In this document: one piece after another, positions 6,807 to 28,775 of the stretch
How positions within the stretch are numbered: position 1 is the first letter of the stretch
Layout: each line of letters begins with the position of its first letter
DNA from: Verrucomicrobiota bacterium
GTDB taxonomy: Bacteria; Verrucomicrobiota; Verrucomicrobiia; Opitutales; Seribacteraceae
Direction of reading: 5' to 3'
NCBI GenBank assembly: GCA_028343845.1
Contig: JAOLZO010000012.1
Coordinates: 1-63,057, forward strand
DNA length: 63,057 nucleotides
Translations under genes and position numbers: made by a program
Notes under the pieces: model-generated
The model's input: the letters and a program-made list of their open reading frames with translations, nothing else
The model's database searches: none
What the model was told of the DNA's origin: nothing

Positions 6807-7325
6807 ATGGTAGTCTGGTTAGTGGGCATGTCGGGGTCGGGGAAAACAACTTTGGGCCGGATTGTTTATGATGATCTTAAGGGCCGTCAGCCAAATACGG
6901 TTTTTGTGGATGGCGATGAAATTCGTGCCTTGTTCAAGCATGATGATTTGAAAAAAGATTATTCGGTTGAGCAAAGAAGGAGGAACGCCGAACGCATTTA
7001 TGAAATTTGCCTTTGGTTGGACCGGCAGGGAATTAACGTGGTTTGCTGTATATTATGCATTTTTCCGGATATTCTGGAGCAAAACAAAACAGTCTTTTCC
7101 CACTACAGGGAAATCTACCTTAAGGCCAATTTGCCGGAACTCATTTCGAGAGATACGAAGGGCGTATACGTTGACTCCGATGATGATCGACCCTCAAATG
7201 TCGTTGGCATGGACATTCCTTTTCCTGAACCGGTTAAGCCAGATCTAATACTGAATACGACCGATAACTCAGGTTCTCCTGAAGAGCTCGCCGCCCAAGC
7301 AATTGCAATTCTTGAAACGCCCTGA
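6807..7325 (+). CDS. APS-kinase-like kinase, candidate cytidine-diphosphoramidate kinase
   Basis: A 172-residue P-loop kinase with Walker A GMSGSGKTT at 7-15, VDGDEIRALF and the RRRNAERI helix, all characteristic of adenylylsulfate kinase (CysC). The CysC segment around its FISP motif is replaced by CCILCIFPD, and no sulfate-assimilation genes are nearby. In C. jejuni the CysC-like Cj1415 phosphorylates the 3' hydroxyl of CDP-phosphoramidate. The other three enzymes of that pathway lie at 9452-13136, so this role is inferred here. The fold is sure; the substrate is inferred from context. Confidence 0.7.
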   Translation: MVVWLVGMSGSGKTTLGRIVYDDLKGRQPNTVFVDGDEIRALFKHDDLKKDYSVEQRRRNAERIYEICLWLDRQGINVVCCILCIFPDILEQNKTVFSHYREIYLKANLPELISRDTKGVYVDSDDDRPSNVVGMDIPFPEPVKPDLILNTTDNSGSPEELAAQAIAILETP

Positions 7326-7890
7326 CAGTCCTTTGAGTAGTTCAAGCCAATACCCTTACTCCGAAGGGGACAAACTGGAGAGTAAGAATACTTATTTTTA
7401 TACCGCTTACTCAGGGAAACCCTTTCTTGATGCTTGGAAGTCTGATCGTAGCAAGGCAATTGCCGGCATGGAGTCAGCTCTTGTTATTCCTGCATCCGAA
7501 CCTGTCCCGGAAAATGATTTTTCCGGTTATGGAGTGCTGGAGCGAATTCTGAAACAAATCGAAAGTTCCGAAGAGTCGCGGACGCTTCTGCTTTTGATCA
7601 AGAGGTTTGAGGTTACAAAGCGAATATACCTTCGCTACAAGCCAGATTTGCGGCCTGTTGATTCCAGTGAATTCCGAGATCTTTCCCTTTATCTTCGATG
7701 GGCAGAAATACTTGGTTTGGCTTACGAAAAGTTCGGTCACCTGTTTTACCTGAATGCATTCATCAAGGTACTTGACACGTTGATATCGGTAAAGGAAGAC
7801 ATTTTGACGGAAGGTCATGGTCGGTTTGCCCGTTGCATAATGCTGGAAGTGGAAGTTGTTGAAAATTTGATGAACAAAGTCACTCGATGA
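7303..7890 (+). CDS. Hypothetical protein of unknown family
   Basis: No family recognised. The longest frame (195 codons) starts at TTG 7303 inside the kinase gene. TTG 7333, 8 nt after the kinase stop, would give 185 residues and is equally plausible. The first 70 residues are polar and rich in Ser, Pro and Tyr. The remainder looks helical, with hydrophobic heptad-like stretches (LLLLIKRFEVTKRIYL, LRWAEILGLAYEKFG). No signal peptide or clear membrane segment. It overlaps the following formyltransferase by 4 nt and sits inside the putative phosphoramidate module, so it may be a partner or scaffold; this is a guess. Confidence 0.6.
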   Translation: MQFLKRPDSPLSSSSQYPYSEGDKLESKNTYFYTAYSGKPFLDAWKSDRSKAIAGMESALVIPASEPVPENDFSGYGVLERILKQIESSEESRTLLLLIKRFEVTKRIYLRYKPDLRPVDSSEFRDLSLYLRWAEILGLAYEKFGHLFYLNAFIKVLDTLISVKEDILTEGHGRFARCIMLEVEVVENLMNKVTR

Positions 7891-8612
7891 ACAAACCGGT
7901 CGACGTGCTTTTTCTGGCTGCCGACTCTTCAAGGTCGAAGACGTACGCTCAGGTAATGCAGCACTCGGGATTATCTGTTTCCCGGACACTGCTTTTAAGG
8001 AAACAAAAGGCCCAGGGGACCAATTCGGCACCATTCGGAAAACCGACCTCCCCTGACGTCGAAATCGTATTGCCTGATTTGAAAATCCCTTTGGTCGAAA
8101 CCGTTGAGAAAATTTCTGACAAGTTTGACATAGTCGAAAATTACGGTGGCATAAAGAGGAGCGGAATAATCGAGTACCTTGCGACCCATAGACCAAAATT
8201 GGTTATATATTCGGGTTATGGAGGGGAATTGGTTCCCGAAGAAATGCTTGGGTTGGGGATTCCATTTCTTCATATCCATTCAGGTTGGTTGCCTGAGTAT
8301 CGCGGTAGTACTACCGTTTACTACAGTTTGCTCAATGATGGTAACTGTGGTGTCACTGCTATTTTGCTTAAACCGGAGATAGATAACGGTGATATAGTGG
8401 CAAGGAAAAAGTACCCTGCGCCCCCATCTGGCGTCGACATTGATCATCTATACGACAACGCAATCCGAGCGGATTTACTTTCCGAGGTTCTTGCCGGATG
8501 GATGAAAAACCACGAGTTCGAGGGGTTTGTTGAGCAAGATGAATCCGAAAGCCAAACTTACTATGTGATTCATCCGGTTCTCAAGCACTTGGCAATCTTA
8601 TCAACAAGTTGA
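7887..8612 (+). CDS. Formyltransferase-fold protein with altered catalytic site
   Basis: A 241-residue member of the formyl_trans_N family (methionyl-tRNA or sugar formyltransferases using N10-formyl-THF). The family core N-x-H-x-S-L-L-P-x-x-x-G appears as HIHSGWLPEYRG: the usual asparagine is H129, while H131 is kept, and the Asp motif is present as EIDNGD169I. The N-terminal part (LFLAADSSRS) is not a standard Rossmann glycine loop. It may formylate a sugar amine or have another acyl- or carbamoyl-type chemistry. It overlaps the hypothetical gene upstream by 4 nt. Confidence 0.65.
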   Translation: MNKPVDVLFLAADSSRSKTYAQVMQHSGLSVSRTLLLRKQKAQGTNSAPFGKPTSPDVEIVLPDLKIPLVETVEKISDKFDIVENYGGIKRSGIIEYLATHRPKLVIYSGYGGELVPEEMLGLGIPFLHIHSGWLPEYRGSTTVYYSLLNDGNCGVTAILLKPEIDNGDIVARKKYPAPPSGVDIDHLYDNAIRADLLSEVLAGWMKNHEFEGFVEQDESESQTYYVIHPVLKHLAILSTS

Positions 8613-8649
8613 AGAGATTCGCATTTCCCGCAACTCAGGAATCCACCTA

Positions 8650-9441
8650 ATGAGAATTACTTACAGAAGCAAAAACAACAAAGAATATTGGCAAAAAAGG
8701 TGGGATGACGTCGAGGTTGATGAAAAAATGGAAAACGCCGATGTTTATCCGTTGAAATATGCCCAGATTGCAATCGATGACAAAGAGGGACGAATACTGG
8801 AAGCTGGTTGTGGGGCAGGGCGAATTCTCAGATACTACCATGATCTGGGTTACGACATTACCGGTATTGATTTCATTGAGTCGGTCATTTCCAAGCTCAA
8901 AACTACCGATTCCTCTCTCAAAGTTGCTCCCGGTGACATCACGAACTTGGATTTTTCAGATGAGTATTTTCATCATGTTTTGGCTTTTGGTCTCTATCAC
9001 AACTTGGAAAAAGGGCTTGATAAGGCACTCGCCGAAACTTCAAGAGTTCTCGTTTCAGGTGGTGTGTTATGCGCTTCCTTCAGGGCCGACAATCTTCAAA
9101 CTTTATTGGTTGATTACCTTGCCGAAAAGAACGTCAATCACAAGGCATCTGCAGCCAAGATTTTCCATAAGGCGAATTTTACACGAAACGAAATCAATCA
9201 ATATCTTTCTGGCGCCGGTTTAACGCCTGTTTCAATCTATCCGGTCGTCAATATGCCGATACTTTACAAGTTCGGGATCTTTAGGCAAAGAGCTCACAAG
9301 GATTTTAACGAAAACTTGGGCCGGAAGGAGGGATACAAATTAAATGCTATTGGGAATTTGATACAAAAATTTCTCTTCAAGTTTTTCAGATATCAATTTT
9401 GTAACCTTTTTGTTGTTATCGCCAAAAAAGATCAAAGCTAA
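8650..9441 (+). CDS. Class I SAM-dependent methyltransferase
   Basis: A 263-residue protein with the SAM-binding motif EAGCGAG at 51-57 (I-L-E-A-G-C-G-A-G-R), then GIDF, the acidic loop GDITNLDF, and LAFGLYHNL in motif II/III. In Campylobacter, methyltransferases (Cj1419/Cj1420) are encoded beside the phosphoramidate genes and are thought to supply the O-methyl group. This gene sits directly upstream of the glutamine-kinase-like gene, so the same role is a reasonable inference; a sugar O- or N-methyltransferase is the alternative. Confidence 0.75.
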   Translation: MRITYRSKNNKEYWQKRWDDVEVDEKMENADVYPLKYAQIAIDDKEGRILEAGCGAGRILRYYHDLGYDITGIDFIESVISKLKTTDSSLKVAPGDITNLDFSDEYFHHVLAFGLYHNLEKGLDKALAETSRVLVSGGVLCASFRADNLQTLLVDYLAEKNVNHKASAAKIFHKANFTRNEINQYLSGAGLTPVSIYPVVNMPILYKFGIFRQRAHKDFNENLGRKEGYKLNAIGNLIQKFLFKFFRYQFCNLFVVIAKKDQS

Positions 9442-9451
9442 AAACATTCAA

Positions 9452-11788
9452 GTGAAATTCGAATCCAAGGCAGATACTTTAAAATCACTCGAGGACAAGC
9501 TTGGCACCGCAAAGGTGCTTCCTCAGTTTTCTTTCTCTTACAATGTTTGGCAAGGTGCCTCGTCAGGTATTGAAGCGATCGGAACAGTCCCTGACTGGAT
9601 GGATTTCAGTGTGCCGTTGATTGTCCGAAGCAGCGGTCAAAGCGAAGATTCTCTGGAGCATTCCCTCGCTGGTCATTTCGAGAGTGTTCTTGGGGTTAGC
9701 AAAAAGAGCGAGCTAATCGATGCAGTCAATACGGTTTTCAAGTCATTTGGCTCTCCAAAGGCGGACGATCAGGTATTCATCCAACCTATGCTCAAGGATG
9801 TCCTGAGGAGTGGTGTTGCCTTTACCCGAGATCCTAGCAATGGGGGTCATTATCATGTCATTAATTATGACGACCAGAGTGGGTCCACCTCTTCGGTTAC
9901 GGATGGTTCTTCAGGGCAATTGAAAACAATTTATCATTTCAAAAGTAGAAAAATCGATGATGGTTCATGGATGAATCGAGTGATCAACTTGTCTCAAGAA
10001 CTCCAGGCCTTGTTCGACCATGACTCGCTTGACCTTGAGTTCGGTTTTGATTCCAAGGATGAACTCTTTTTGCTTCAGGTTCGACCTCTCATTCTTAACG
10101 ATCTCAGCTCTTCGGTTTCCATTTCGAGGCAAGAACAGGTTCTTGCTCAAATTGAGGAGAAAGTAAATTCACTTTCTAAACCTCATCCATATCTTTTGGG
10201 CAAGCGATCTGTTTTTGGGGTAATGCCTGATTGGAACCCGGCTGAGATCATAGGAATCAGACCGAAGCCCCTTGCACTGTCATTATACAAGGAATTGATA
10301 ACGGATAGCATCTGGGCGTACCAAAGAGACAACTACGGCTACCGAAACCTAAGAAGCTTTCCTTTGCTGGTTAGCTTTTCAGGAATTCCTTTCATCGACG
10401 TCCGGGTAAGCTTTAATTCCTTCATTCCCAGTTCTCTGAATGATGAAGTGGCCGAGAAACTCGTAGACTCCTACATAGAAAACTTGGTGGAAAACCCAAA
10501 TAAGCATGACAAAGTCGAATTCGAAATAGTTCATTCCTGTTATACGCTTGATTTGCCGGCAAGGCTTGAGGAACAAAAGGCACAAGGCTTTACGGATGCC
10601 GAATGCTCGGACATAGCGGAAAGTCTTCGAGTTCTGACCAATAACATAATCAACGATCAAAACGGCCTCTGGAAAAAAGATTATGAGAGAATCGAGGAAT
10701 TAAGAGCAAGGCACACTCTGATTCAGGAAAGCAATTTAACAAAAATAGAAAAAATTTATTGGCTCATTGAAGATTGCAAGAGATACGGTACATTGCCTTT
10801 TGCCGGTTTGGCTCGAGCAGGTTTCATTGCCGTTCAAATGATTGGTTCTTTAGTTCGGACGGGAATTTTGTCAGAAGTTCAGTATCACGGATTCATGTCT
10901 TCATTGAATACCGTAAGTTCAAGAATGGCTTCCGATCTTTCCCAAAACGACTTTGAAAGCTTTTTGCAAACTTATGGTCATTTGCGACCAGGGACTTATG
11001 ATATTTTGTCTCCCAGGTACGATGAGACTCCCGAACTCTATTTCAGTGTCGATTCGGATTCAGGGACGGCAGATCCCCCTAAGGACTCAGCCTTCTCTTT
11101 GGGCTTGGACGACATGAATCGGTTAAGCGAAATCCTCATGGAGCATAAGCTGGATCACAATGTCATAAGCCTGCTGAATTTCTTTAGATCGGCGATAGAG
11201 GGCAGGGAGTATGCAAAGTATATTTTCACCCGTAGCTTGAGTGACGTCTTGAAGCTGATTTCTGAATTAGGCTCAGAAATGAGTCTTTCAAAGGAAGAAC
11301 TTTCATATTTAAACATTAATGACCTTCGTAAGCTTTACGCGTCTTCGGAAAACCTGGAGAATTCCCTTAAGAGGAGCATCGAGCACGGCAAGCAAGATCA
11401 TGAAGACACCTGTTCATTGAACTTGCCGTCCCTGATTACCTCCTCCTCTTCGGTTTGGTCTTACGAGCCTGCGATTAACGAACCTAATTTCATTACCCTT
11501 AAATCCATTCGTGGGAGCGTTGTCTTAAAGGACGAGGATGTTTCCCGGTTTTCGGGTAACATCCTTATGGTTGAGAGTGCGGATCCCGGTTATGATTGGA
11601 TTTTCTCTCACGGTATAGGTGGTTTCATCACCAAGTACGGAGGAGCGAACTCGCATATGGCCATAAGGGCAGGGGAGCTTGGCATTCCTGCAGTCATCGG
11701 CGCAGGTGAAGCCCTCTATGGACAATGGGAAAAAGGACAGGTTCTCGAGCTCGACTGCATGAACAAGAAGGTCCTCGTGATAAAATGA
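9452..11788 (+). CDS. PEP-synthase-like enzyme, candidate L-glutamine kinase
   Basis: A 778-residue protein from GTG 9452, 10 nt after the methyltransferase stop; TTG 9410 would overlap it. An N-terminal ATP-grasp (PPDK_N) domain has VRSSGQSEDS with R59 and an SGVAFTRDP segment. The C-terminal swivelling His domain has GGANSHMAIRAGELGIPAV with phospho-His candidate H735. The large C-terminal PEP/pyruvate barrel of true PEP synthases is absent. This layout matches Cj1418 of C. jejuni, which converts L-Gln + ATP to Gln-phosphate, AMP and Pi. The next two genes match the two following steps of the same pathway. Rifampin-phosphotransferase-like activity is the alternative. Confidence 0.75.
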   Translation: MKFESKADTLKSLEDKLGTAKVLPQFSFSYNVWQGASSGIEAIGTVPDWMDFSVPLIVRSSGQSEDSLEHSLAGHFESVLGVSKKSELIDAVNTVFKSFGSPKADDQVFIQPMLKDVLRSGVAFTRDPSNGGHYHVINYDDQSGSTSSVTDGSSGQLKTIYHFKSRKIDDGSWMNRVINLSQELQALFDHDSLDLEFGFDSKDELFLLQVRPLILNDLSSSVSISRQEQVLAQIEEKVNSLSKPHPYLLGKRSVFGVMPDWNPAEIIGIRPKPLALSLYKELITDSIWAYQRDNYGYRNLRSFPLLVSFSGIPFIDVRVSFNSFIPSSLNDEVAEKLVDSYIENLVENPNKHDKVEFEIVHSCYTLDLPARLEEQKAQGFTDAECSDIAESLRVLTNNIINDQNGLWKKDYERIEELRARHTLIQESNLTKIEKIYWLIEDCKRYGTLPFAGLARAGFIAVQMIGSLVRTGILSEVQYHGFMSSLNTVSSRMASDLSQNDFESFLQTYGHLRPGTYDILSPRYDETPELYFSVDSDSGTADPPKDSAFSLGLDDMNRLSEILMEHKLDHNVISLLNFFRSAIEGREYAKYIFTRSLSDVLKLISELGSEMSLSKEELSYLNINDLRKLYASSENLENSLKRSIEHGKQDHEDTCSLNLPSLITSSSSVWSYEPAINEPNFITLKSIRGSVVLKDEDVSRFSGNILMVESADPGYDWIFSHGIGGFITKYGGANSHMAIRAGELGIPAVIGAGEALYGQWEKGQVLELDCMNKKVLVIK

Positions 11789-12408
11789 AGAAAATTGCGG
11801 TTACTCAGAGAGTCTCTGAAGAAAGTTCTTATCAGGAAAGAAGGGATGCCCTCGATCAAAGATGGATTGATTTTCTTTTGTCAGTTGGCCTTTTCCCCGT
11901 ATTGATACCGAACCATTTGGCTTTCGTTGAAGCCATGATTGAGGGAAGTGGCGTTCAAGGGATTCTTCTTACGGGAGGGAATTCTCTTTGTAAATATGGT
12001 GGCGAAGCAAAAGAAAGAGATCAGGTCGAAAAATACTTGCTCGAATGGTCGATGAAGAAGGATCTTCCGGTTCTCGGGGTTTGCAGAGGAATGCAGTTGG
12101 TTCAGGATTTCTTTGGGAATGAACTTAACCCAGTCGACGGCCATGTCGGTGCTCGTCACGAACTTTCAATTGTCGAAGGTAGACGTTTGTCCGATGTCTT
12201 GACCAAGCTTGCTTCGGTTAACTCCTATCACGAATATGGAACAAAAGTGGTTTCTGGCGAGCTTGCCGCCTGCGCTCACTCGCTTGATGGCGTAGCGATG
12301 GCAGTCGAGCACGTTTCCCGGAGAGTCTATGGAGTAATGTGGCACAGCGAAAGGGAGTCTCCTTTCGTTAAAGAGGAGCAAGAAGTTTTTAACTATATTT
12401 TCAAATGA
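11785..12408 (+). CDS. Class I glutamine amidotransferase-like hydrolase, candidate gamma-glutamyl-CDP-amidate hydrolase
   Basis: A 207-residue protein from ATG 11785, overlapping the upstream stop (ATGA). It is a peptidase C26/GATase1 fold: oxyanion strand LLTGGNSL, nucleophile elbow GVCRGMQ with C100, and WHSE with H187 and E189. The N-terminus KKIAVTQRVSEESSYQERRD resembles Cj1417 (from memory). That enzyme cleaves CDP-glutamine to CDP-phosphoramidate and glutamate. Its position between kinase-like and cytidylyltransferase-like genes, all overlapping by 4 nt, supports the role. Confidence 0.75.
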   Translation: MKKIAVTQRVSEESSYQERRDALDQRWIDFLLSVGLFPVLIPNHLAFVEAMIEGSGVQGILLTGGNSLCKYGGEAKERDQVEKYLLEWSMKKDLPVLGVCRGMQLVQDFFGNELNPVDGHVGARHELSIVEGRRLSDVLTKLASVNSYHEYGTKVVSGELAACAHSLDGVAMAVEHVSRRVYGVMWHSERESPFVKEEQEVFNYIFK

Positions 12409-13136
12409 AAAAAGCGATAATTTTAGCAGCTGGCAGAGGAAGCAGGATGAATTCATTAACAGAGACCCTGCCCAAGTGCCGGACGGTTTTGCATGGAAAA
12501 GAATTAATCCAGTGGCAGATGCAGGCGTTGAAGGCAGGAGGAATTGACGAAGTCGGCGTAGTCAGGGGATACTTGGCTGAAACTTTTGAGCAGGATGCAA
12601 CTTTTTTTGAGAATCCCCGATGGGCGGAGAGCAATATGGTCCGATCCTTGTTGGCCGCCAGGGATTGGTTGTCGAATTACGAATGCATTGTCAGTTATTC
12701 GGATATCGTTTACTCGGGTGATGCTGTGATCAAATTGAATGCATCTTCCTCAAACACAGCCCTTACTTTTGATCCGAATTGGAGGAAGTTGTGGTCAAGA
12801 AGGTTTGCCGATCCTCTGTCCGATGCAGAAACTTTCAAGTTGAGCAGTGAGTCCAGATTGACTGAGATTGGCAAACGAACCACTACTTTCGAAGAAATCG
12901 AAGGTCAGTACATGGGGTTGATCAAATTCAAACCCGATGGTTGGGCAGTGGTGGATGGTTTTCTCCATGAGCTGCCTAACGATTCCATCGACTCAATGGA
13001 TATGACGACTTTGTTGCAAAACATGATAGAACTTGGCTTGGAAATTGAAGGGGTTCCAATTTCGGACAGGTGGTACGAAGTTGATTCGGAATCCGATTTG
13101 CGATTGTACGAATCAGAAGAAGCACCTCTTTTTTAA
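12405..13136 (+). CDS. CTP-type nucleotidyltransferase, candidate L-glutamine-phosphate cytidylyltransferase
   Basis: A 243-residue NTP_transferase. The N-terminus has the signature LAAGRGSRM at 7-15 and P23-K24; then SNMVRSLLAARDWL, SYSDIVY (metal Asp) and a late E-V-D-S-E-S-D segment. This architecture is shared by phosphocholine cytidylyltransferases (LicC type) and by Cj1416, which joins CTP and L-glutamine phosphate. The genomic order kinase - hydrolase - cytidylyltransferase makes the Cj1416-like role more likely than phosphocholine activation; no choline kinase or choline transferase gene was noticed. ATGA overlap with the previous stop. Confidence 0.75.
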   Translation: MKKAIILAAGRGSRMNSLTETLPKCRTVLHGKELIQWQMQALKAGGIDEVGVVRGYLAETFEQDATFFENPRWAESNMVRSLLAARDWLSNYECIVSYSDIVYSGDAVIKLNASSSNTALTFDPNWRKLWSRRFADPLSDAETFKLSSESRLTEIGKRTTTFEEIEGQYMGLIKFKPDGWAVVDGFLHELPNDSIDSMDMTTLLQNMIELGLEIEGVPISDRWYEVDSESDLRLYESEEAPLF

Positions 13137-13138
13137 GG

Positions 13139-14833
13139 TTGCGAAAGAAAAACATTATTATCGTCGATGTAGACGCCTTGATGCCTAGCAGGACCGGGGT
13201 AGGTGGCAACTTGCCTTGTGTTAGCCCATTTTTTGATAGTTTGGCGTCGGAGGGGTTGAATTTTTCGAATGCCTTTACAATGGGAAACCCTACGGAGTTT
13301 GCCTTGCCTGGGCTTTTTGCATCATCGTACTTGCTGGATAATGGTGGATATCGAAATGGGATTGCGGACAGGGAGGTTGCCTTTGCGGAGGTTCTCAAAC
13401 GAATCGGTTATTCAACTAGTGCGTTTTTCACGATATTCAGACCCAAAAACGACGAATATCATCGAGGATTTGACGACTTTTATCATTTGTACGATCTGCA
13501 GGTTACCGAAAAAAACTTTATGAATACCGCGAATTGGTACGTGGATGCTCTTGGTCGGGGCAGCATAGAGACTGCCGAGTGCAAAAGTGAACTTTCAATC
13601 TATTATAAAGAGTACCTGGAGGATGTTCAGCGTTATTGCGAGTCTTGGATCGATTATGGCGAAAACGGGGTTCTGCCTGAATCCAAGATTTTTAATAATA
13701 TCAATTACCGAATTGTGGGGGAGAGGGTTAAGATGAATTTGGAAAGTCTTGCCGCAAACCCTGACAAAGTTGTCGACCCAATTCTGACGGGAGATAGAAT
13801 TGGGTTGTCCGAGATAGTAGGCAAAGAAGTTCGCAGGAGGAAGAAAGTGCTTAAACCGACTTTTCTGGACTTGAAGTTCAGAGCTCAGGTTCTCAGGTAT
13901 TGCGGCGCGATGTTCAATCGTTCCACTTCAAGGGATTCGGGGAAGGATACTTTTGCCCTTGCGCTGGACAGGGTATTGCATGGCCAAAGTAATCTGCTGA
14001 TGCGTTACCCTTCCGGGGGTTACGTTTTGGAAGCTTTCAAGAGATGGCATGGCAAACATAAGGAAGGCAAGCCATTCTATTCCTATATGAAGTTATTGGA
14101 TGCTCATGAGTTAAATTTGTATTCCCATGATTTGAATCAGCAGAAAGATGAGCAAAAGCAAGAATACGAAATATTTAAAAAATGTCTCCGGGGTCTCTGC
14201 TCGGAAAAAAACTACAAGGGCAATTTGCTTTACGATTGTTCCGTCAGGTATGTCGATCAGGTACTTCATCGATTGGTCGACTATTTGAAAAAAGCCAATA
14301 TTCTTAAAGATACAATTCTGGTAATAACCGCTGATCACGGAGGGACCTATCCCAATATCCCAGTTAGAGGAAACAAATCTCACCGAGTTAACGCTTTCTA
14401 TGACGAACTCTATAGAATTCCACTTGTCTTTTCAGGCGAAGGGTTGGAAGCCAAAAGTTCTCAGTCCCTTGTCTCGTCAGTCGACATCGGTTCAACCCTT
14501 CTGTATTTGATAGGGGAATCGAATCCTCCTTCCTTTAGGGGCAGATCATTGTTGAGTGACGTTGAAAGACGTTACGTGATGTCTGAAAATCAGGGCAGGG
14601 GGCCTTGTGACTTGGTTCGAAAACCGGTTCGGGTTTGCATTAGATCCAAGAGATTCAAGCTTGTCTACGAGAAGCCTCCGGGCAAAAGCGAGGAAGGTTT
14701 CGTCGATCAATTGTATGATTTGCGGAACGATCCCGATGAAATGGTTAACCTCAAGTCAGATGCAGATGCATTGAGTGATTCGGAAGATCTCTTAAAGGTG
14801 GCCCGGAACAGAACGGAGGAAATCGTAAGTTGA
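13139..14833 (+). CDS. Alkaline-phosphatase-superfamily (sulfatase-fold) protein, candidate phospho-group transferase
   Basis: A 564-residue protein with a TTG start 2 nt after the previous stop. It has the superfamily layout: N-terminal metal Asp in IIIVDVDALMPSRTG, a nucleophile-region GNPTEFALPGLF with T52, and the distal metal site ITADHGGTYPN with D399/H400. The sulfatase signature C/S-x-P-x-R is absent; a threonine is used as in phosphoethanolamine and phosphoglycerol transferases. There is no signal peptide or membrane domain, so it is cytoplasmic. Directly following the phosphoramidate genes, it is a candidate for the enzyme that transfers that group (or a phospho-alcohol) to the glycan; this is inference. 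Confidence 0.65.
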   Translation: MRKKNIIIVDVDALMPSRTGVGGNLPCVSPFFDSLASEGLNFSNAFTMGNPTEFALPGLFASSYLLDNGGYRNGIADREVAFAEVLKRIGYSTSAFFTIFRPKNDEYHRGFDDFYHLYDLQVTEKNFMNTANWYVDALGRGSIETAECKSELSIYYKEYLEDVQRYCESWIDYGENGVLPESKIFNNINYRIVGERVKMNLESLAANPDKVVDPILTGDRIGLSEIVGKEVRRRKKVLKPTFLDLKFRAQVLRYCGAMFNRSTSRDSGKDTFALALDRVLHGQSNLLMRYPSGGYVLEAFKRWHGKHKEGKPFYSYMKLLDAHELNLYSHDLNQQKDEQKQEYEIFKKCLRGLCSEKNYKGNLLYDCSVRYVDQVLHRLVDYLKKANILKDTILVITADHGGTYPNIPVRGNKSHRVNAFYDELYRIPLVFSGEGLEAKSSQSLVSSVDIGSTLLYLIGESNPPSFRGRSLLSDVERRYVMSENQGRGPCDLVRKPVRVCIRSKRFKLVYEKPPGKSEEGFVDQLYDLRNDPDEMVNLKSDADALSDSEDLLKVARNRTEEIVS

Positions 14834-15849
14834 ATTTAATCATCATCGGTTCCTATCTAAACATGCAATGTGTCATTGATATCGTAGAACGTGAAAAACA
14901 TGATTTCAAAATCTTATCAACGGAAGACAGTCTGCTTGATCTTTTTGCGGAGCTATATGGAAGAGGAAAGGTTTACAAGATACCGAATGTCTTTGAAAAC
15001 TTCGGCAACTTCAAAACCCTTCTCAGTGATTTTTTCCATTTGTTTCAACATAAGAAAAGACTGATCAAAGAAATTGGCGCTTTTCAACCGAAGAACCTTT
15101 ACTTCTTTTTTCTAGGATGGAATGGCCTCGCATCTTGGCTAATAAAGGAATTTTCTCAGATTTGTAATATCTACTACAGACCCAAGGTAAATGTCGATTT
15201 GCTGCAAACTGACAAGTCATGCCGGATGCAAATCAAAACGGCGATTGCAAGTGCAGTATGCGGAGCAAGACTGAGGTCTGGAATGTATTATGGTTACTCC
15301 TTGATCGCCATCGACAAGAGGTTTCTTGAGAAGGTCAGGGCAAGGGATTACCTGCATGAAATTGATCATTGCAATATCAAGAGATTCCTATCCAGGAAAT
15401 TTGACTATCTTCAAAAGGTCAGGGTGATGATTTTGAATGGCGGCATGTACAATGTCGAAGAAGATGAATACGCTCGGATCATGAAGTCGGTTTCGATTGC
15501 TCTTTTCACGAAATACGAAGCATTTGAAATTTGCCTTAAGGATCACCCGAATTTTCCTGTTGTAGAGTTGGAAGCTTTTGACAAATGCTTAAAGGTGCCG
15601 ATTCATTTGCCCGCAAGCCTGCTTTGCTATCATTGTGATATCGTAATTGGTTACAGTAGCGCGACTTTGTACGAAGCCGCCAATATGGATAAGAAATCCA
15701 TTAGCTTGGTTAAATTGGTTCCAACAACCAAACCCAGTCAGGTGAAGGAGATAATGGATTACTTGGAAGAGCATGTTGAAAACGGAGTGATTGAATATCC
15801 TGCCGATGCCTCCGGCTTCGACCGGGTTTTAGAAGGGGAAAGAACATAA
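14830..15849 (+). CDS. Putative glycosyltransferase, sialyltransferase-like (HP/SS motifs)
   Basis: A 339-residue protein with a TTG start overlapping the upstream stop (TTGA). No strong family match is recalled. Motifs resemble bacterial sialyl/polysialyltransferases of the GT-B type: an H-P pair in CLKDHPNFPVVE, followed by PIHLPASLLCYHCD and VIGYSSATLYEAA, the place of the conserved Ser pair that binds the CMP phosphate. With a CMP-nonulosonate synthetase in the locus, a nonulosonate transferase is plausible. An unrelated GT-B enzyme or a Kdo-like transferase remains possible. Confidence 0.5.
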   Translation: MNLIIIGSYLNMQCVIDIVEREKHDFKILSTEDSLLDLFAELYGRGKVYKIPNVFENFGNFKTLLSDFFHLFQHKKRLIKEIGAFQPKNLYFFFLGWNGLASWLIKEFSQICNIYYRPKVNVDLLQTDKSCRMQIKTAIASAVCGARLRSGMYYGYSLIAIDKRFLEKVRARDYLHEIDHCNIKRFLSRKFDYLQKVRVMILNGGMYNVEEDEYARIMKSVSIALFTKYEAFEICLKDHPNFPVVELEAFDKCLKVPIHLPASLLCYHCDIVIGYSSATLYEAANMDKKSISLVKLVPTTKPSQVKEIMDYLEEHVENGVIEYPADASGFDRVLEGERT

Positions 15850-18842: not shown

Positions 18843-19466
18843 TTGATTACTGTTTTGGATTATGGGGCGGGTAACACTGCATCAATATTGAATATGATGA
18901 GCAAGGTTGGTTTGGAGGCGGAAAGTTCTTTGTCCCCGGAGGTATTGGGCAAATCAAAAGCCATCATATTTCCAGGTGTAGGTGCTTTTGACAATGGAAT
19001 GAAGAAGATAAGGGATTCAGGCGTTTGGGAATTGCTCAATGAGCTGGTCCTTGACCGCAAAATCCCCTTTTTGGGGATTTGTCTAGGTATGCAGATGCTT
19101 TTTGAATCTAGCGAGGAAGGAAAGGAGAAGGGTTTTGGCTGGCTTCCTGGTACCGTAAGGAGGTTTGATTTCTCGGATAGCGCTAAAGTTAACAAAATTC
19201 CTCATATGGGTTGGAATTTTGTTAATGCGTCCAAGGATAACCCGCTGTTTGAGAGCTTGCATGATGAAAACAGATTTTATTTCGTTCATTCCTTTCATGT
19301 GGAATGTGACGATGCGAAGCATTCGGTAGCTTCGACTCATTACGGTTACGATTTCACTTGTTGCGTGCAAAAGGAAAATATTTTCGGCGTACAGTTTCAT
19401 CCGGAGAAGAGCCATCGATTCGGTATGGCCTTCTTCAGAAATTTCTCGAATTTTTTGCAATGCTGA
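18843..19466 (+). CDS. hisH: HisH-like glutaminase subunit (paralogue for sugar amidation)
   Basis: A 207-residue class I glutamine amidotransferase with a TTG start. The HisH N-terminus VLDYGAGNTASI, nucleophile ICLGMQMLF with C80, and FHPEKS with H186/E188 give a complete Cys-His-Glu triad. It releases ammonia from glutamine for its HisF-like partner, which overlaps its 3' end by 7 nt. The pair is followed by a WbpG-like amidotransferase and not by histidine genes, so it most likely feeds ammonia to sugar amidation as in the P. aeruginosa WbpG/HisH2/HisF2 system. Confidence 0.85.
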   Translation: MITVLDYGAGNTASILNMMSKVGLEAESSLSPEVLGKSKAIIFPGVGAFDNGMKKIRDSGVWELLNELVLDRKIPFLGICLGMQMLFESSEEGKEKGFGWLPGTVRRFDFSDSAKVNKIPHMGWNFVNASKDNPLFESLHDENRFYFVHSFHVECDDAKHSVASTHYGYDFTCCVQKENIFGVQFHPEKSHRFGMAFFRNFSNFLQC

Positions 19467-20239
19467 AAACCCGTGTCATCCCGACATTGCTCCTTAGAGA
19501 TAAGGGACTGGTCAAAGGTGAAAACTTTAAGAAGCACTCCTACATAGGTGACCCGATCAATGCGGTAAAGATCTTTAATGAAAAGGAGGTGGACGAGATC
19601 GTATTTTTGGACATCAGTGCAACCCCTAATCGCAGGGGGCCCAATTTCGATTTGATAAGCGACATAGCTTCAGAGGCATTTATGCCTTTCGGGTATGGAG
19701 GTGGCGTGACGAGCGTGGATCAGATAGAGAAGCTTTTCAATCTGGGCGTTGAGAAAGTGATTATGAACACCTCTGCTCATTCTAATCCCGAACTGATCAG
19801 GGAGGCTAGCCGAATTGCCGGAGCGCAAAGTATCGTTGTCTCGATAGACGTAAGGAAAACTCTATTGGGGAATTACGAAGTTTATACTGAAAACGGAACG
19901 TTGAGAACAAAGTCGTCGCCAGTCGATTACGCCAAGCGCATGGAGGAACTTGGCGCGGGCGAGTTAATCTTATGTTCGATTGCAAATGAAGGAACTGGCA
20001 AGGGCTACGACCTGAAGTTGCTAGAATCGGTTTGTTCTGCAGTGGATGTTCCTGTCGTCGCCCTTGGCGGGTGTGGCGATCTTCAAGATATGAAAAATGC
20101 AGTGGAATTGGGCTCCGCTTCCGCAGTGGCCGCCGGAAACCTTTTTGTTTTTCATGGGAAGCTTAAAGCCGTCCTCATAACCTATCCGAAATATTCCGAG
20201 CTGGTGGAGATTTTTGGTACCAAGTCTGGAAATGCCTGA
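19460..20239 (+). CDS. hisF: HisF-like cyclase-subunit paralogue (ammonia partner of sugar amidotransferase)
   Basis: A 259-residue TIM-barrel protein from ATG 19460; an in-frame ATG at 19358 lies deep inside hisH and is rejected. The N-terminus MLKTRVIPTLLLRDKGLVKG aligns with HisF (IPCLDVKDGRVVKG), but the catalytic Asp of the first strand is a leucine; the second Asp is kept as D130 in VVSIDVRKT. Loss of the first Asp argues against imidazole-glycerol-phosphate synthesis and for a channel role delivering HisH-derived ammonia to the next gene's product, which overlaps by 8 nt. Confidence 0.85.
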   Translation: MLKTRVIPTLLLRDKGLVKGENFKKHSYIGDPINAVKIFNEKEVDEIVFLDISATPNRRGPNFDLISDIASEAFMPFGYGGGVTSVDQIEKLFNLGVEKVIMNTSAHSNPELIREASRIAGAQSIVVSIDVRKTLLGNYEVYTENGTLRTKSSPVDYAKRMEELGAGELILCSIANEGTGKGYDLKLLESVCSAVDVPVVALGGCGDLQDMKNAVELGSASAVAAGNLFVFHGKLKAVLITYPKYSELVEIFGTKSGNA

Positions 20240-21371
20240 AATTTACCAAGTTTGCTCTCGATGCGTCATGGATACCAGTGATCCAGATATCGTATTCGAT
20301 GCCGATGGAGTTTGTAGTCATTGCCACAATTTTGACAAAGAATGGTCTTTGCGGTGGTTTCCCGACGAACGGGGGAAAGCGATGCTGGATCAAATCATGT
20401 CCGGCGTTCGCGAGAAGGGAAAAGGCAAGGATCATGATTGCATTATTGGCCTGAGCGGAGGTGTTGATAGCTCCTACTTGGCTCTTGTTCTCAAGGAGTA
20501 TGACCTACGTCCCCTGGTTGTTCACGTGGATGCGGGATGGAATAGTGAACTGGCAGTTTATAACATAGAGCAGGTGGTAAAGCATTGCGGATATGAATTG
20601 CATACACATGTCATGGATTGGGAGGAAATCAGGGATTTGCAGGTTGCTTATCTAAAGGCCGGTGTTTCCAACCAGGATGTTGTTCAAGATCATGCCTTTT
20701 TTGCTTCTCTTTACCATTTTGCGGTAAAGCATAAAATAAAAGATGTCATCAGCGGTGGAAATATTGCGACCGAGTCCGTTTTTCCTGATTCGTGGCATCA
20801 CGATGCAATGGATGCCTCCAGCCTTAAGTCGATTCACAAGACATTCGGAGTTAAAAAGCTGCGCCAATACAAAACGATAGGATTTTATGAATACTATTTT
20901 CATTATCCATTCATCAAGGGCATGACTGTGACCAGGCCCCTCAATTTTATGCCATACGACAAGGTGGCGGCTCTCGATGTGCTTAAGGAAAAGATCGGTT
21001 ACAAGGAATATGGTAGAAAACATGGTGAATCTCGCTTTACAAAGTTTTTTCAAAATTACTTTTTACCCCAGAAATTCGGTTACGATAAGCGCTTGCCTCA
21101 TTTTTCCAGTCTCATCCTGTCAGGGCAAATGTCCAGAGAGGATGCCCTGAACGAACTCAAGAGTTCATTGTATGACGAAAATGAGCTCAGGGAAGACAAG
21201 GCCTACATAGCGAAGAAGCTTGGGATAAGCGTTTCTGACTTGGAGGGATTCGCCGGATCCGAAGGCATCCACTACACCGAGTACCGTAACTGGGACAAGA
21301 AATACAGGATGTTGTCCCTTATGAAGAAAGTCGTTCGGAAACTTGGTTGGTTCAAGTTGAAAACTTACTGA
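20232..21371 (+). CDS. N-acetyl sugar amidotransferase, WbpG/PseA-like (PP-loop)
   Basis: A 379-residue protein from ATG 20232, overlapping hisF. The Cys-rich start CSRCVMDTSDPDI followed by CSHC (a likely metal knuckle) and the PP-loop SGGVDSS at 75-81 are diagnostic of the WbpG/PseA/LfnD family. These enzymes activate an N-acetyl group with ATP and use ammonia from HisH/HisF to make an acetamidino sugar. Length and domain order are normal. It is the first of three related PP-loop proteins in 5.3 kb and the one most tightly tied to the HisH/HisF pair. Confidence 0.85.
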   Translation: MPEIYQVCSRCVMDTSDPDIVFDADGVCSHCHNFDKEWSLRWFPDERGKAMLDQIMSGVREKGKGKDHDCIIGLSGGVDSSYLALVLKEYDLRPLVVHVDAGWNSELAVYNIEQVVKHCGYELHTHVMDWEEIRDLQVAYLKAGVSNQDVVQDHAFFASLYHFAVKHKIKDVISGGNIATESVFPDSWHHDAMDASSLKSIHKTFGVKKLRQYKTIGFYEYYFHYPFIKGMTVTRPLNFMPYDKVAALDVLKEKIGYKEYGRKHGESRFTKFFQNYFLPQKFGYDKRLPHFSSLILSGQMSREDALNELKSSLYDENELREDKAYIAKKLGISVSDLEGFAGSEGIHYTEYRNWDKKYRMLSLMKKVVRKLGWFKLKTY

Positions 21372-21386
21372 TGCGTAAAGCGTAAT

Positions 21387-22541
21387 ATGAAAGTTGAAAT
21401 GAATGAATTGACGAAATTAAATATTCATATATATCCGTCAAATTTAACATGCGAAACTAGGATAGAAAAGTTGGCTCAATCATTAATTAAAAAATCATTA
21501 TTTGATGAAGTAATAGTTATCGGAACAAATGACGGAGAAGTTAAAAAAGTTAGGATGTTCTCAGATAGAATAAAATTTCTCCTCATGGGGTTACCTAATA
21601 AATATCAAAACTTTATTTTAAAAGTATTTGTGTTCCTAACTTTTTACTTAAGTGTTATTGTCTTCTGCTTTCGAAAAAAAAGTATAAAATGCATTAATGC
21701 TCATAGCCTTTCTGTACTCCCTTTATGTTATATAGTTTCTAAGATAAAAAAGACGAAATTAATATATGACACCCATGAGCTAGAAACCGAGACGAATTCT
21801 ATATCTGGAATTAGGAAAAGAGCCTCAAAAATATTGGAGCGAATATTAATTAGTAAAGCCGACTATACTTTTGTCGTCAGTAAATCAATAGAAGAGTGGT
21901 ACGAAAGTACTTATTCTATGGAAAATATTGAAACAGTCTTTAATGCTCCGAGTATTGATTACATGAAAATTGATCACGATGATTACTTCAGGAGTAAATT
22001 CAACATAAGCAGCGATTCCATCATTTACATATATGTTGGTGGTTTGGGGCCGGGCCGAGGGGTAGAAGTTCTTCTGGATGTGTTTTCCAAAGTGGACGGC
22101 CAAAAAGGGAGCCTTATATTTATGGGGGAGGGTCTTCTTGTTGACAAAGTATTGGCTAGCCAGGCAGAGATGCCCGTTTACTACCACGAGCCGGTTCCTA
22201 CTTCCGAAGTCGTGAGCTATTCCTCCAGTGCCGATATTGGTATCTCCTACATCGAGAATACCAGTCTTTCGCACTATTTCTCAATGCCGAACAAGGTTTT
22301 TGAATATCTTTATTCCTCCTTGCCCGTAATAACTTCAAATATGTTGGACTCATCCCAATTCGTGATCAACAATGATATTGGCTTTGTTGTCGAAGATGGT
22401 GCCGAACTGTTGGCTTTGGTGCAAAAAATGAACTGGAAACTCATTCAATCGAAGAAATCCAATATAGGCAGTCTTATCGAAGGGATCTCCTGGGAAAAAC
22501 AGGAAGACAAAATTGAAAAAGTTTATCATGGCATTCTTTGA
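21387..22541 (+). CDS. Glycosyltransferase family 4-like
   Basis: A 384-residue GT-B protein: N-terminal acceptor domain with a hydrophobic stretch around FVFLTFYLSVIVFCF, YDTHELE, then the donor domain YVGGLGPGRGVEVLLD, LIFMGEG, and ADIGISYIEN...PNKVFEYLYSSLPV with the C-terminal Glu motif. It adds a repeat-unit sugar. Composition is mosaic inside the gene: 21421-21540 has 33 G/C in 120 bases, while 22021-22080 has 30 in 60. That may mean a recombination joint near 22.0 kb. Confidence 0.75.
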   Translation: MKVEMNELTKLNIHIYPSNLTCETRIEKLAQSLIKKSLFDEVIVIGTNDGEVKKVRMFSDRIKFLLMGLPNKYQNFILKVFVFLTFYLSVIVFCFRKKSIKCINAHSLSVLPLCYIVSKIKKTKLIYDTHELETETNSISGIRKRASKILERILISKADYTFVVSKSIEEWYESTYSMENIETVFNAPSIDYMKIDHDDYFRSKFNISSDSIIYIYVGGLGPGRGVEVLLDVFSKVDGQKGSLIFMGEGLLVDKVLASQAEMPVYYHEPVPTSEVVSYSSSADIGISYIENTSLSHYFSMPNKVFEYLYSSLPVITSNMLDSSQFVINNDIGFVVEDGAELLALVQKMNWKLIQSKKSNIGSLIEGISWEKQEDKIEKVYHGIL

Positions 22542-22578
22542 GAGCTACCGACTGTTGCCTGATTATGAATAATTAGAT

Positions 22579-23694
22579 ATGGAATGCCGTAGATGCATTA
22601 TGTCGGATGAGCATGATCCTGACATTGATTTTGATGGTGACGGTCTTTGCAATCATTGCCGCAGGTACGACGAACTTTGTTCATCACGGGTATTTGAAGG
22701 TCAAGATGGTCAAGACAGGCTTGACGAATTGATTGCCAAAATCAAACGAACCGGAAAGAACAAGGAATATGATTGCATTATTGGCGTCAGCGGAGGTGTG
22801 GATAGCACTTATCTTGCTTATTTGGCCAAAAAACTCGGCTTGCGGCCTCTGGCTATCCATTTCGACAATGGATGGAACAGTAACTTGGCGGTAAAGAATA
22901 TAGAAAAGGTTCTGACGAAACTTGAAATAGATTTACATACTTACGTCATAGATTGGCCCGAGTTCAAATCCCTCCAATTGTCTTTTCTGCACGCCTCTGT
23001 TCCCGATGGAGAAATACCGACGGATCACGCGATCGATTCTTTGTTGTGGCAGGAGGCGTCCAAAAGAAAAATAAAATATATTTTATCCGGTATGAACTTT
23101 GCGACCGAGTCCCTGAGCGTCCCTAGCTGGGCTTATGGTCATTCGGATTGGAAATATATAAAGGCAATTCACAAAAAGTTTTGTGGAGAAAAACTAAAGA
23201 ACTTTCCTTACTATACCTTCTTTTCGTTGTTTTATTATAACTTCATAAAGAATGTTAGGATTGTGTCTATTCTTAATTATATTAACTATGATAAGGACGA
23301 GGCAATGAAAGTTCTAAATAAAGAGCTTAATTGGGAGTATTATGGAGGGAAGCACTATGAATCAATATATACGAGATTTTTTCAAGGTTATATACTTCCC
23401 GAAAAATTTAATATAGATAAAAGAGTCGGTCATTTATCCGACCTGATTAATTCAGGTCAAATCAGTAAGGAAGAGGCAAAAAATAGACTGAAAGAACCTG
23501 TTTATCCCGATAAATACTTTTTGGAAGACTATCAGTATGTGCTAAAGAAATTTGATTTAAGCAAAGATGAATTTGATAATATACTTAAGGCTGAAATAAA
23601 ATCTTTTAGAGATTATCCTAATTCATATAATTTAGTTCAGTTTATGAGGAAGTGCATAAATGTTTTGAGGAAATATAACTTGTACCCTAAATAA
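22579..23694 (+). CDS. Second N-acetyl sugar amidotransferase, WbpG-like (PP-loop)
   Basis: A 371-residue protein clearly related to the product of 20232-21371: CRRCIMSDEHDPDI, CNHC, PP-loop SGGVDST at 71-77, and matching blocks such as FDNGWNSNLAVKNIE. No dedicated glutaminase gene adjoins it, so it may share HisH/HisF or use another ammonia source. The 5' half has normal composition, but from about 23160 to the end it is very AT-rich (13 G/C in the 60 bases at 23221-23280). It probably amidates a second position or a second sugar. Confidence 0.8.
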   Translation: MECRRCIMSDEHDPDIDFDGDGLCNHCRRYDELCSSRVFEGQDGQDRLDELIAKIKRTGKNKEYDCIIGVSGGVDSTYLAYLAKKLGLRPLAIHFDNGWNSNLAVKNIEKVLTKLEIDLHTYVIDWPEFKSLQLSFLHASVPDGEIPTDHAIDSLLWQEASKRKIKYILSGMNFATESLSVPSWAYGHSDWKYIKAIHKKFCGEKLKNFPYYTFFSLFYYNFIKNVRIVSILNYINYDKDEAMKVLNKELNWEYYGGKHYESIYTRFFQGYILPEKFNIDKRVGHLSDLINSGQISKEEAKNRLKEPVYPDKYFLEDYQYVLKKFDLSKDEFDNILKAEIKSFRDYPNSYNLVQFMRKCINVLRKYNLYPK

Positions 23695-23731
23695 AACGAC
23701 TCTCTTGTTTCTCATTATATAATATATTGTC

Positions 23732-27965: not shown

Positions 27966-28775
27966 ATGAAGGGTAGGGCAACTGTTTTGGTGACCAATGG
28001 AAATTTGATTTCATTGATTGCATTGCGTCTATGGCTTGATGCAAATCTTTCGGTTTTAAAGCTGGTTGTTATTACAACAAAGCTCCCTTCGGCCAAAAGT
28101 AATGTGCGTGAAACCTTTAAGATTTTGAGAAATTCCGGAATTAGATATTGTGGATTTAAACTTTTCTCTAACCTCTTTTTCCCTTTGTTTTTAAAAATTA
28201 TTGGTCGTCCGTACAATGTTCAAAGCTATATTCGCAATACGGGGATACGGGTTATTCGTACCGAAAACGTGAACGACCCTGCCGTCATTGCGAAAATAAA
28301 AAGCTCCTCTCCTGACATTCTTCTTTCATTCAGTGCCACAACTAAGTTCTGTACCGAATTAATATCGGCATCCAAGAGAGTATCCATCAACCTTCATTAT
28401 GCTTTGCTCCCTAAGTATGCTGGGTTGTCACCATATTTTTGGTACCTTTTCAATCACGAGAAAACTTCAGGTTGTACATTGCATGTAATATCGGATGTTC
28501 TTGATGCGGGAAATGTAATTGAGATGCGATCTTTTGCAATGAACGGATGTAATAGCGTGGCAAGCGTACTTCTGCAGCAAACGAAACTAGTGTCTCCAAT
28601 GTTAAATGATTTTTACAAGGGAAAAACTTCCGAGAATTCGTTAACCAAGCAAAACTTGTCGGAGAGGAGTTATTTTCGTCATCCAACGAAAGACCAAGCA
28701 GTCGTTTTTAACAAAAGCAGTCATGAATACATAACCTTCGAGGATGCTCGAGAAATTTTCAATTTAGTTTCTTGA
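27966..28775 (+). CDS. Sugar N-formyltransferase-like protein
   Basis: A 269-residue formyl_trans_N protein. The catalytic segment SINLHYALLPKYAGLSPYFW keeps the N-x-H pair and the LLPxxxG loop; the Asp motif is SDVLDAGNVIE, with GN in place of the usual GD. It is sandwiched between the LegC-like aminotransferase and LegB-like dehydratase, so the likely substrate is UDP-4-amino-4,6-dideoxy-GlcNAc with N10-formyl-tetrahydrofolate as donor. It is the second of three formyltransferase-fold proteins in the window. Confidence 0.7.
   Translation: MKGRATVLVTNGNLISLIALRLWLDANLSVLKLVVITTKLPSAKSNVRETFKILRNSGIRYCGFKLFSNLFFPLFLKIIGRPYNVQSYIRNTGIRVIRTENVNDPAVIAKIKSSSPDILLSFSATTKFCTELISASKRVSINLHYALLPKYAGLSPYFWYLFNHEKTSGCTLHVISDVLDAGNVIEMRSFAMNGCNSVASVLLQQTKLVSPMLNDFYKGKTSENSLTKQNLSERSYFRHPTKDQAVVFNKSSHEYITFEDAREIFNLVS

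What the first reader, a model, noticed from the sequence alone, without database searches (positions are those of the whole stretch)
6807..14833. Complete candidate phosphoramidate (MeOPN-type) pathway in a non-Campylobacter-like polysaccharide locus
Seen: a CysC-like kinase with a changed FISP region (6807-7325), a PEP-synthase-like protein with ATP-grasp and His domains but no barrel (9452-11788), a C26-type hydrolase with C100/H187/E189 (11785-12408) and a LicC-like nucleotidyltransferase (12405-13136); the last three overlap by 4 nt each. Known: in C. jejuni, Cj1418 phosphorylates glutamine, Cj1416 makes CDP-glutamine, Cj1417 releases CDP-phosphoramidate and Cj1415 phosphorylates its 3' hydroxyl. 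Inference: all four steps are encoded here, so this glycan may carry P-N groups. The gene order differs from Campylobacter and unknown genes are inserted.
Basis: partly seen in the sequence, partly recalled or inferred. Interest (0 to 1): 0.92.

Follow-up and report, generated by a model that had tools for sequence, protein, structure and literature searches.

The report
Phosphorus-nitrogen sugar-tag pathway outside Campylobacter
An uncultured bacterium carries, inside a surface-polysaccharide gene cluster, what looks like the enzyme set for making a rare phosphorus-nitrogen tag known from Campylobacter capsules, but with different finishing genes, so the final tag may differ from the known methylated one.

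Summary
The four genes are intact and at the stated coordinates. The glutamine-kinase-like protein is far above its family cut-off (967 vs 501 bits). The hydrolase's best model is gamma-glutamyl-CDP-amidate hydrolase, but under its cut-off (119.6 vs 250), as for other cassette hydrolases (23-139 bits). The CysC-like kinase falls with other cassette kinases, apart from APS kinases of related genomes (100/99). No Campylobacter sequence could be fetched, so the link to Cj1415-Cj1418 rests on models and papers. New here: the cassette has at least two forms. In 8 of 13 loci with the kinase, one methyltransferase family lies beside it, 5 of those 8 with sulfotransferase-fold genes or a kinase-sulfotransferase fusion. 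The window and two other genomes instead share three extra genes (7303-7890; a formyltransferase fold with H-x-H for N-x-H; a sulfatase fold without the C/S-x-P-x-R signature), and that methyltransferase family was not found in those three incomplete assemblies. A P-N group is well supported; its being O-methyl is not. Best reading: a new variant of a known pathway.

The parts
6807..7325 (+). CysC-like kinase; proposed CDP-phosphoramidate 3'-kinase (Cj1415 role)
   Evidence: PRK05541 subfamily 130.3 bits (cut-off 127), apsK 78.2 (cut-off 138.7); tree split from 6 APS kinases 100/99, with the L039 kinase as nearest (98/98)
7303..7890 (+). unknown, predicted all-helical protein kept in this cassette type; true start codon unsure (TTG 7303 overlaps the kinase by 23 nt; 7345-7890 was used for searches)
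   Evidence: relatives beside the cassette in L039 (8e-31) and, through L039, L026 (A1 36% and 23%); family in 2 of 384 genomes of the class, both with the kinase-like gene; no Pfam hit; no PDB fold match at E 0.001
7887..8612 (+). formyltransferase-fold protein with H129-x-H131 and D166; proposed tailoring enzyme
   Evidence: Formyl_trans_N; relatives in L026 and L039; H-x-H in 3 of 3, N-x-H in 9 of 9 other fold members compared
8650..9441 (+). SAM methyltransferase (Methyltransf_11); role open; no relative seen in the other two cassettes of this type
9452..11788 (+). glutamine-kinase-like protein (Cj1418 role); proposed catalytic His at residue 735
   Evidence: NF004508 967.4 bits, cut-off 501; H735 and ATP-binding residues invariant in 11 sequences
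11785..12408 (+). gamma-glutamyl-CDP-amidate hydrolase-like, C100/H187/E189 (Cj1417 role)
   Evidence: NF045546 119.6 bits (cut-off 250), next best 52.6
12405..13136 (+). LicC-like CTP transferase (Cj1416 role)
   Evidence: NTP_transf_3; 1jyk LicC best in PDB; relatives beside the kinase-like gene
13139..14833 (+). sulfatase-fold (alkaline phosphatase superfamily) protein; Thr52 is my candidate nucleophile; proposed P-N group transferase
   Evidence: PF00884; D12, T52, D399, H400 the same in 3 aligned sequences; T52 as nucleophile not shown

Best explanation
The window encodes a nucleotide-activated phosphoramidate pathway inside a polysaccharide locus. Inferred by homology: 9452-11788 phosphorylates the amide N of L-glutamine with ATP; 12405-13136 joins it to CMP from CTP; 11785-12408 removes glutamate to leave CDP-phosphoramidate; 6807-7325 adds a 3'-phosphate. 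Then the window departs from the known route. In place of the methyltransferase family that goes with this kinase elsewhere, it has three genes kept with the same four in two other genomes. My inference: the sulfatase-fold protein (Thr52 as candidate nucleophile, no signal sequence by eye) moves the phosphoramidate from the nucleotide to a sugar hydroxyl, and the H-x-H formyltransferase-fold protein with its helical partner modifies the P-N group or its acceptor. So the glycan carries a phosphoramidate that is probably not simple MeOPN. Odds: the four core steps 0.85; cassette of a separate type 0.7; transfer by 13139-14833 0.35 (lowered from 0.4 on checking, because the only alignment to a solved sulfatase puts T52 one residue off its nucleophile); formyl-type modification of the P-N group itself 0.2.
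For: Profile scores, conserved residues, kinase tree. Core trio in 16 of 20 loci compared, window included. Fusions tie the steps: kinase-like protein with a CTP-transferase-like stretch in 4 loci, L008 (weak, 5e-4), L009, L026, L027; with the hydrolase in L072; 3'-kinase with a sulfotransferase domain in L040 and L042, two close relatives. Seven genes shared by window, L039 and L026 in different orders. One methyltransferase family beside the kinase in 8 of 13 kinase-bearing loci, on another contig in G387, not found in G000, G320, G788. Polysaccharide context: flippase, carbamoyltransferase, CMP-sugar synthetase fold. Chemistry of Cj1415-Cj1418: PMC11800397 (passages).
Against: No biochemistry. 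No direct comparison with Campylobacter proteins. The hydrolase is under its model's cut-off; cassette hydrolases range down to 63 bits (G256) and 23 bits (G177). The CTP transferase has no specific model. The window's own methyltransferase could still make MeOPN. G996, 93% complete, has the kinase but neither the methyltransferase family nor the formyl gene, so the link is not strict. The cassette type rests on three genomes 64, 86 and 88% complete. The window's unknown and sulfatase-fold proteins do not find their L026 counterparts by phmmer. T52 as nucleophile is not shown, and the model of 13139-14833 failed (pLDDT 42).
Confidence: 0.6

Rival explanations
1. Ordinary MeOPN pathway as in C. 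jejuni, with the methyl group added by the window's own methyltransferase 8650-9441; the formyltransferase-fold and sulfatase-fold proteins serve other sugars of the polysaccharide.
For: A methyltransferase lies directly upstream of the glutamine-kinase-like gene; two Azospirillum loci have a methyltransferase in the same position.
Against: 8650-9441 is not of that methyltransferase family and no relative was found in the other two cassettes of this type, while the formyl gene is kept with the core in all three.
Confidence: 0.25
2. Sulfation genes misread: the CysC-like protein makes PAPS and the sulfatase-fold protein is a sulfatase, unrelated to P-N chemistry.
For: APS_kinase and Sulfatase Pfam folds; solved relatives of 13139-14833 are mostly sulfatases.
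Against: Kinase outside the APS kinase group with its F-I/V-S-P stretch lost; no relative of three sulfotransferase-fold queries in the window by phmmer at 1e-3; no C/S-x-P-x-R signature at the expected place in the sulfatase-fold protein (read; signature recalled).
Confidence: 0.06
3. The core makes a soluble P-N small molecule (antimetabolite or signal) and not a glycan tag.
For: In Agrobacterium vitis the trio sits with LysE-type translocators and a CDP-alcohol phosphatidyltransferase; in a Lachnospiraceae MAG it lies between defence-like genes.
Against: The window context is a polysaccharide locus.
Confidence: 0.09

Closest known systems
C. jejuni MeOPN pathway, Cj1415-Cj1418 (PMC11800397, PMC3907429; passages seen)
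   Same: Same four predicted activities; in a polysaccharide locus.
   Different: Gene order; three extra genes kept with the core; cassette methyltransferase family not found in the assembly; identity to the Cj proteins not measured here.
Unmethylated phosphoramidate in Xanthomonas campestris and Shewanella LPS (as cited in PMC3907429)
   Same: P-N group on a surface glycan outside Campylobacter.
   Different: Chemical findings; I saw no gene assignment for them.
Cassettes of Azospirillum, Smac51, G177, G830, G854 and G1020 (found here)
   Same: Core genes plus the same group of CysC-like kinases.
   Different: Carry one methyltransferase family beside the kinase; 5 of these 8 loci also have sulfotransferase-fold genes.

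Membership tests
CDP-phosphoramidate (MeOPN-type) pathway | L-glutamine kinase (His-domain, ATP-binding domain, no barrel) | tested here: met
   NF004508 967 bits over 501; H735. Met by model only; that this model holds Cj1418 is recalled, not from a call
CDP-phosphoramidate (MeOPN-type) pathway | gamma-glutamyl-CDP-amidate hydrolase | tested here: inconclusive
   best model NF045546, but 119.6 bits under the 250 cut-off; five other cassette hydrolases 75-139; G256 63 and G177 23
CDP-phosphoramidate (MeOPN-type) pathway | CTP:phosphoglutamine cytidylyltransferase | tested here: inconclusive
   fold and LicC likeness, linked gene; no specific model
CDP-phosphoramidate (MeOPN-type) pathway | CDP-phosphoramidate 3'-kinase distinct from APS kinase | tested here: inconclusive
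   distinct from 6 APS kinases, 100/99, and by context; substrate and likeness to Cj1415 not tested; APS kinases were not scored against PRK05541
CDP-phosphoramidate (MeOPN-type) pathway | methyltransferase of the kind found with the kinase elsewhere | tested here: not met
   none at E 1e-15 in G000, assembly 64% complete. Whether Cj1419/Cj1420 belong to that family could not be tested
CDP-phosphoramidate (MeOPN-type) pathway | transferase like Cj1421/Cj1422 | not testable with these tools
   no Campylobacter sequence could be fetched
APS kinase (CysC) | F-I/V-S-P stretch and apsK cut-off | tested here: not met
   78.2 vs 138.7 bits; CILCIFPD in its place
Type I sulfatase | C/S-x-P-x-R signature (recalled) | tested here: not met
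   not seen at the expected place in the three relatives; the weak alignment to 2qzu puts T52 one residue before its Ser
Formyltransferase | N-x-H and Asp catalytic residues (recalled) | tested here: not met
   Asn replaced by His; His and Asp kept

The most novel reading that the evidence does not exclude
The window and two relatives use a distinct branch of P-N chemistry: the nucleotide-bound phosphoramidate is acylated (formyl or similar) by an H-x-H formyltransferase-fold enzyme in place of O-methylation, and is put on the glycan by a cytosolic threonine-nucleophile enzyme of the alkaline phosphatase superfamily. In the methyl branch, sulfotransferase-fold enzymes use the 3'-phospho-CDP donor as a mimic of PAPS, which would explain why a 3'-phosphate is added at all.
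Probability: 0.2. Interest if true: 0.85.

Novelty: new variant of a known kind. Interest (0 to 1): 0.66.

Why it matters
P-N bonds are rare in biology, and a 2019 review says O-methyl phosphoramidate sugars had been seen only in Campylobacter (PMC6429109, passage). Finding the core genes in several unrelated lineages, with two sets of finishing genes, makes open steps testable: which enzyme methylates, which transfers, and why the nucleotide carries a 3'-phosphate. PMC11800397 states that Cj1419 and Cj1420 have no assigned function (passage).

Tried and rejected
Direct comparison with Cj1415-Cj1422: the single genome-contig scan returned one Lachnospiraceae MAG and no Campylobacter; PDB searches listed no chain named as a Campylobacter P-N enzyme; the glutamine kinase paper is not held. 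Viral contigs: patterns matched, but no relative of the formyl, kinase-like or unknown protein was confirmed. Plasmids: no match for the formyl (1e-6) or unknown protein (1e-3). Structure of 7345-7890: pLDDT 68.6, no PDB match with E under 0.001. Structure of 13139-14833: pLDDT 42, not used. An 837-aa protein beside the methyltransferase in L073 looked sulfotransferase-like by eye, but Pfam gave no hit, so it is not counted. 14830-15849 has no Pfam family over its cut-off and no relative in the loci by phmmer; left unassigned. Dropped rows: L015 (near copy of L009) and L072 are not in the 20-locus count; 4 of the 14 plasmid hits (H7, H8, H11, H14) were not fetched, and G961 (gene split between contigs) was not compared; L007 was left out of the kinase tree (12 of 13 cassette kinases used); the first kinase alignment picked wrong frames for several controls and was replaced.
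Full report
WHAT IS THERE. The window is one whole contig (C12, 63,057 bases) of an unnamed assembly of 2.5 Mb in 107 contigs, 64% complete. They lie in a same-strand run from 6807 to 15849 with gaps of at most 37 nt or short overlaps: kinase 6807-7325, unknown 7303-7890, formyltransferase fold 7887-8612, methyltransferase 8650-9441, glutamine-kinase-like 9452-11788, hydrolase 11785-12408, CTP-transferase-like 12405-13136, sulfatase fold 13139-14833, unknown 14830-15849. The surroundings are those of a surface polysaccharide locus: CMP-sugar synthetase fold, flippase, carbamoyltransferase, hexapeptide transferase, and by eye glycosyltransferases and HisH/HisF-like genes.

THE FOUR CORE STEPS. 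The 778-aa protein scores 967 bits against NF004508 (cut-off 501), the next model being a PEP synthase at 73.6; Pfam sees only the ATP-binding and mobile His domains. In an alignment of 11 relatives, H735, ATP-binding residues and most of a central block around DWNPAE are invariant. The hydrolase's best model is gamma-glutamyl-CDP-amidate hydrolase (119.6 bits, cut-off 250; next 52.6). Five other cassette hydrolases also have it as best model, at 75-139 bits, under the cut-off. Against this, in whole genomes the cassette hydrolase of G256 scores 63 and that of G177 only 23 bits, below an unrelated place in G177, so the hydrolase step is the least certain by sequence. The nucleotidyltransferase is LicC-like and has no specific model. 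The kinase is over the cut-off of subfamily PRK05541 (130.3 vs 127) and under that of apsK (78.2 vs 138.7); APS kinases were not scored against PRK05541. Six of 11 genomes searched also hold a match over the apsK cut-off; against these six, 12 cassette kinases form one side of a branch with support 100/99, the window's kinase lying with that of L039 (98/98). The F-I/V-S-P stretch of the APS kinases is replaced in all 12. PMC11800397 (passages) states that Cj1415-Cj1418 make CDP-phosphoramidate 3'-phosphate from glutamine, ATP and CTP.

DISTRIBUTION. The glutamine-kinase-like family was matched over its cut-off in 4 of 387 genomes drawn from the phylum and 8 of 384 from the class, the window's own included in both, and in 1 of 398 drawn around the Lachnospiraceae MAG, that MAG itself. 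By tblastn with the window protein, 14 of 72,556 plasmid records have a relative, among them Azospirillum, Vibrio, Cupriavidus and Agrobacterium, and 1 of 50,697 phage records. These are matches, not proof of function.

CASSETTE TYPES. I compared 20 loci, the window among them, only within the stretches fetched. The trio of kinase-like, hydrolase and CTP-transferase genes is in 16 of 20. A cassette-type CysC-like kinase is in 13 of 20. Beside it, 8 of 13 have one methyltransferase family (L006, L007, L011, L014, L024, L040, L041, L042), 3 of 13 have the unknown plus formyl genes (window, L026, L039), and 2 of 13 have neither nearby: L038, whose contig ends at the kinase, and L002, whose genome G387 has the methyltransferase on another contig (E 3e-98). 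The 7 loci without the kinase have neither (L027 is cut by a contig end). Searching 11 whole assemblies with that methyltransferase family at E 1e-15 gave matches in 5 (G177, G387, G830, G854, G1020) and none in G000, G320 and G788, the three with the formyl gene, nor in G256, G877 and G996. G996 (93% complete, locus L038) has the kinase but neither partner in its assembly, so 5 of 6 kinase-bearing assemblies without the formyl gene have the methyltransferase. The unknown family was found in 2 of 384 class genomes, both with the kinase-like gene. The L026 unknown protein is linked to the window's through L039 and was not found directly.

WHAT THE EXTRA GENES SUGGEST. In the formyl-type cassettes the formyltransferase-fold protein has H-x-H where 9 of 9 other members compared, two of them elsewhere in the window, have N-x-H; the Asp is kept. 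The sulfatase-fold protein keeps D12, T52, D399 and H400 in the three aligned relatives, L026 being remote (27%). I propose T52 as nucleophile, which from general knowledge would suit phosphotransferases and phosphodiesterases of this superfamily and not formylglycine sulfatases. This is not shown: the weak alignment to solved sulfatase 2qzu puts T52 one residue before its Ser, and the structure model failed. In the methyl-type cassettes, sulfotransferase-fold genes with significant Pfam hits lie close by in L006, L024, L040 and L041, and in L040 and L042, two close relatives, the kinase itself is fused to a sulfotransferase domain: 5 of 8 loci in all. I infer that the 3'-phosphate may serve as a PAPS-like handle. 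Sulfotransferases are common in polysaccharide loci (general knowledge), so proximity alone is weak evidence; the fusion is stronger.

LIMITS. No Campylobacter sequence was compared. The formyl-type cassette rests on three incomplete genomes. 8650-9441 may be the methylating step after all. Neither structure prediction added a function.

LITERATURE. Nine text searches, limited to open-access papers and in five cases to the top of a longer list, brought up no paper that I recognised as describing this cassette outside Campylobacter. I saw listings and passages, no whole paper. PMC3907429 notes unmethylated phosphoramidate in Xanthomonas and Shewanella LPS. PMC6247508 reports homologues of cj1419-cj1422 in enterohepatic Helicobacter. 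PMC11924219 assigns seven enzymes, HS1.01-HS1.07, to making and transferring the methyl phosphoramidate in C. jejuni HS:1. PMC9561416 calls the glutamine kinase C. jejuni-specific, which the matches here argue against.

Noticed in passing
L002 3512-9404 and 14697-17070: In the Lachnospiraceae MAG the four-gene cassette lies between RdrA/RdrB-like (and weakly Csx27-like) genes and NsnA/NsnB-like defence genes, with polysaccharide-type genes upstream by eye.
   Followed up: partly
L010, L013, L043: Glutamine-kinase-like gene without the hydrolase and CTP-transferase nearby; in Cupriavidus beside a thiamine-pyrophosphate enzyme and a histidinol-phosphate transaminase, with matching ORFs in Microvirga.
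   Followed up: no
L072 619-3684: A kinase-like plus hydrolase fusion on an unverified 9.5-kb 'bacteriophage' record from human faeces; by eye the neighbours look bacterial, so perhaps mislabelled.
   Followed up: partly
L008 15927-17009, L009 9984-11216, L012 16335-16997: Cassettes without the 3'-kinase sit by CDP-glycerol glycerophosphotransferase-like (weak Pfam hits) or CDP-alcohol phosphatidyltransferase genes, candidates for direct transfer of an unmethylated group.
   Followed up: no
window 18843-25552: HisH/HisF-like genes and several amidotransferase-type ORFs, perhaps for an amidino sugar (read by eye; GATase hit).
   Followed up: no
window 27966-28775 and 40433-41353: Two further formyltransferase-fold proteins with the usual N-x-H.
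   Followed up: partly
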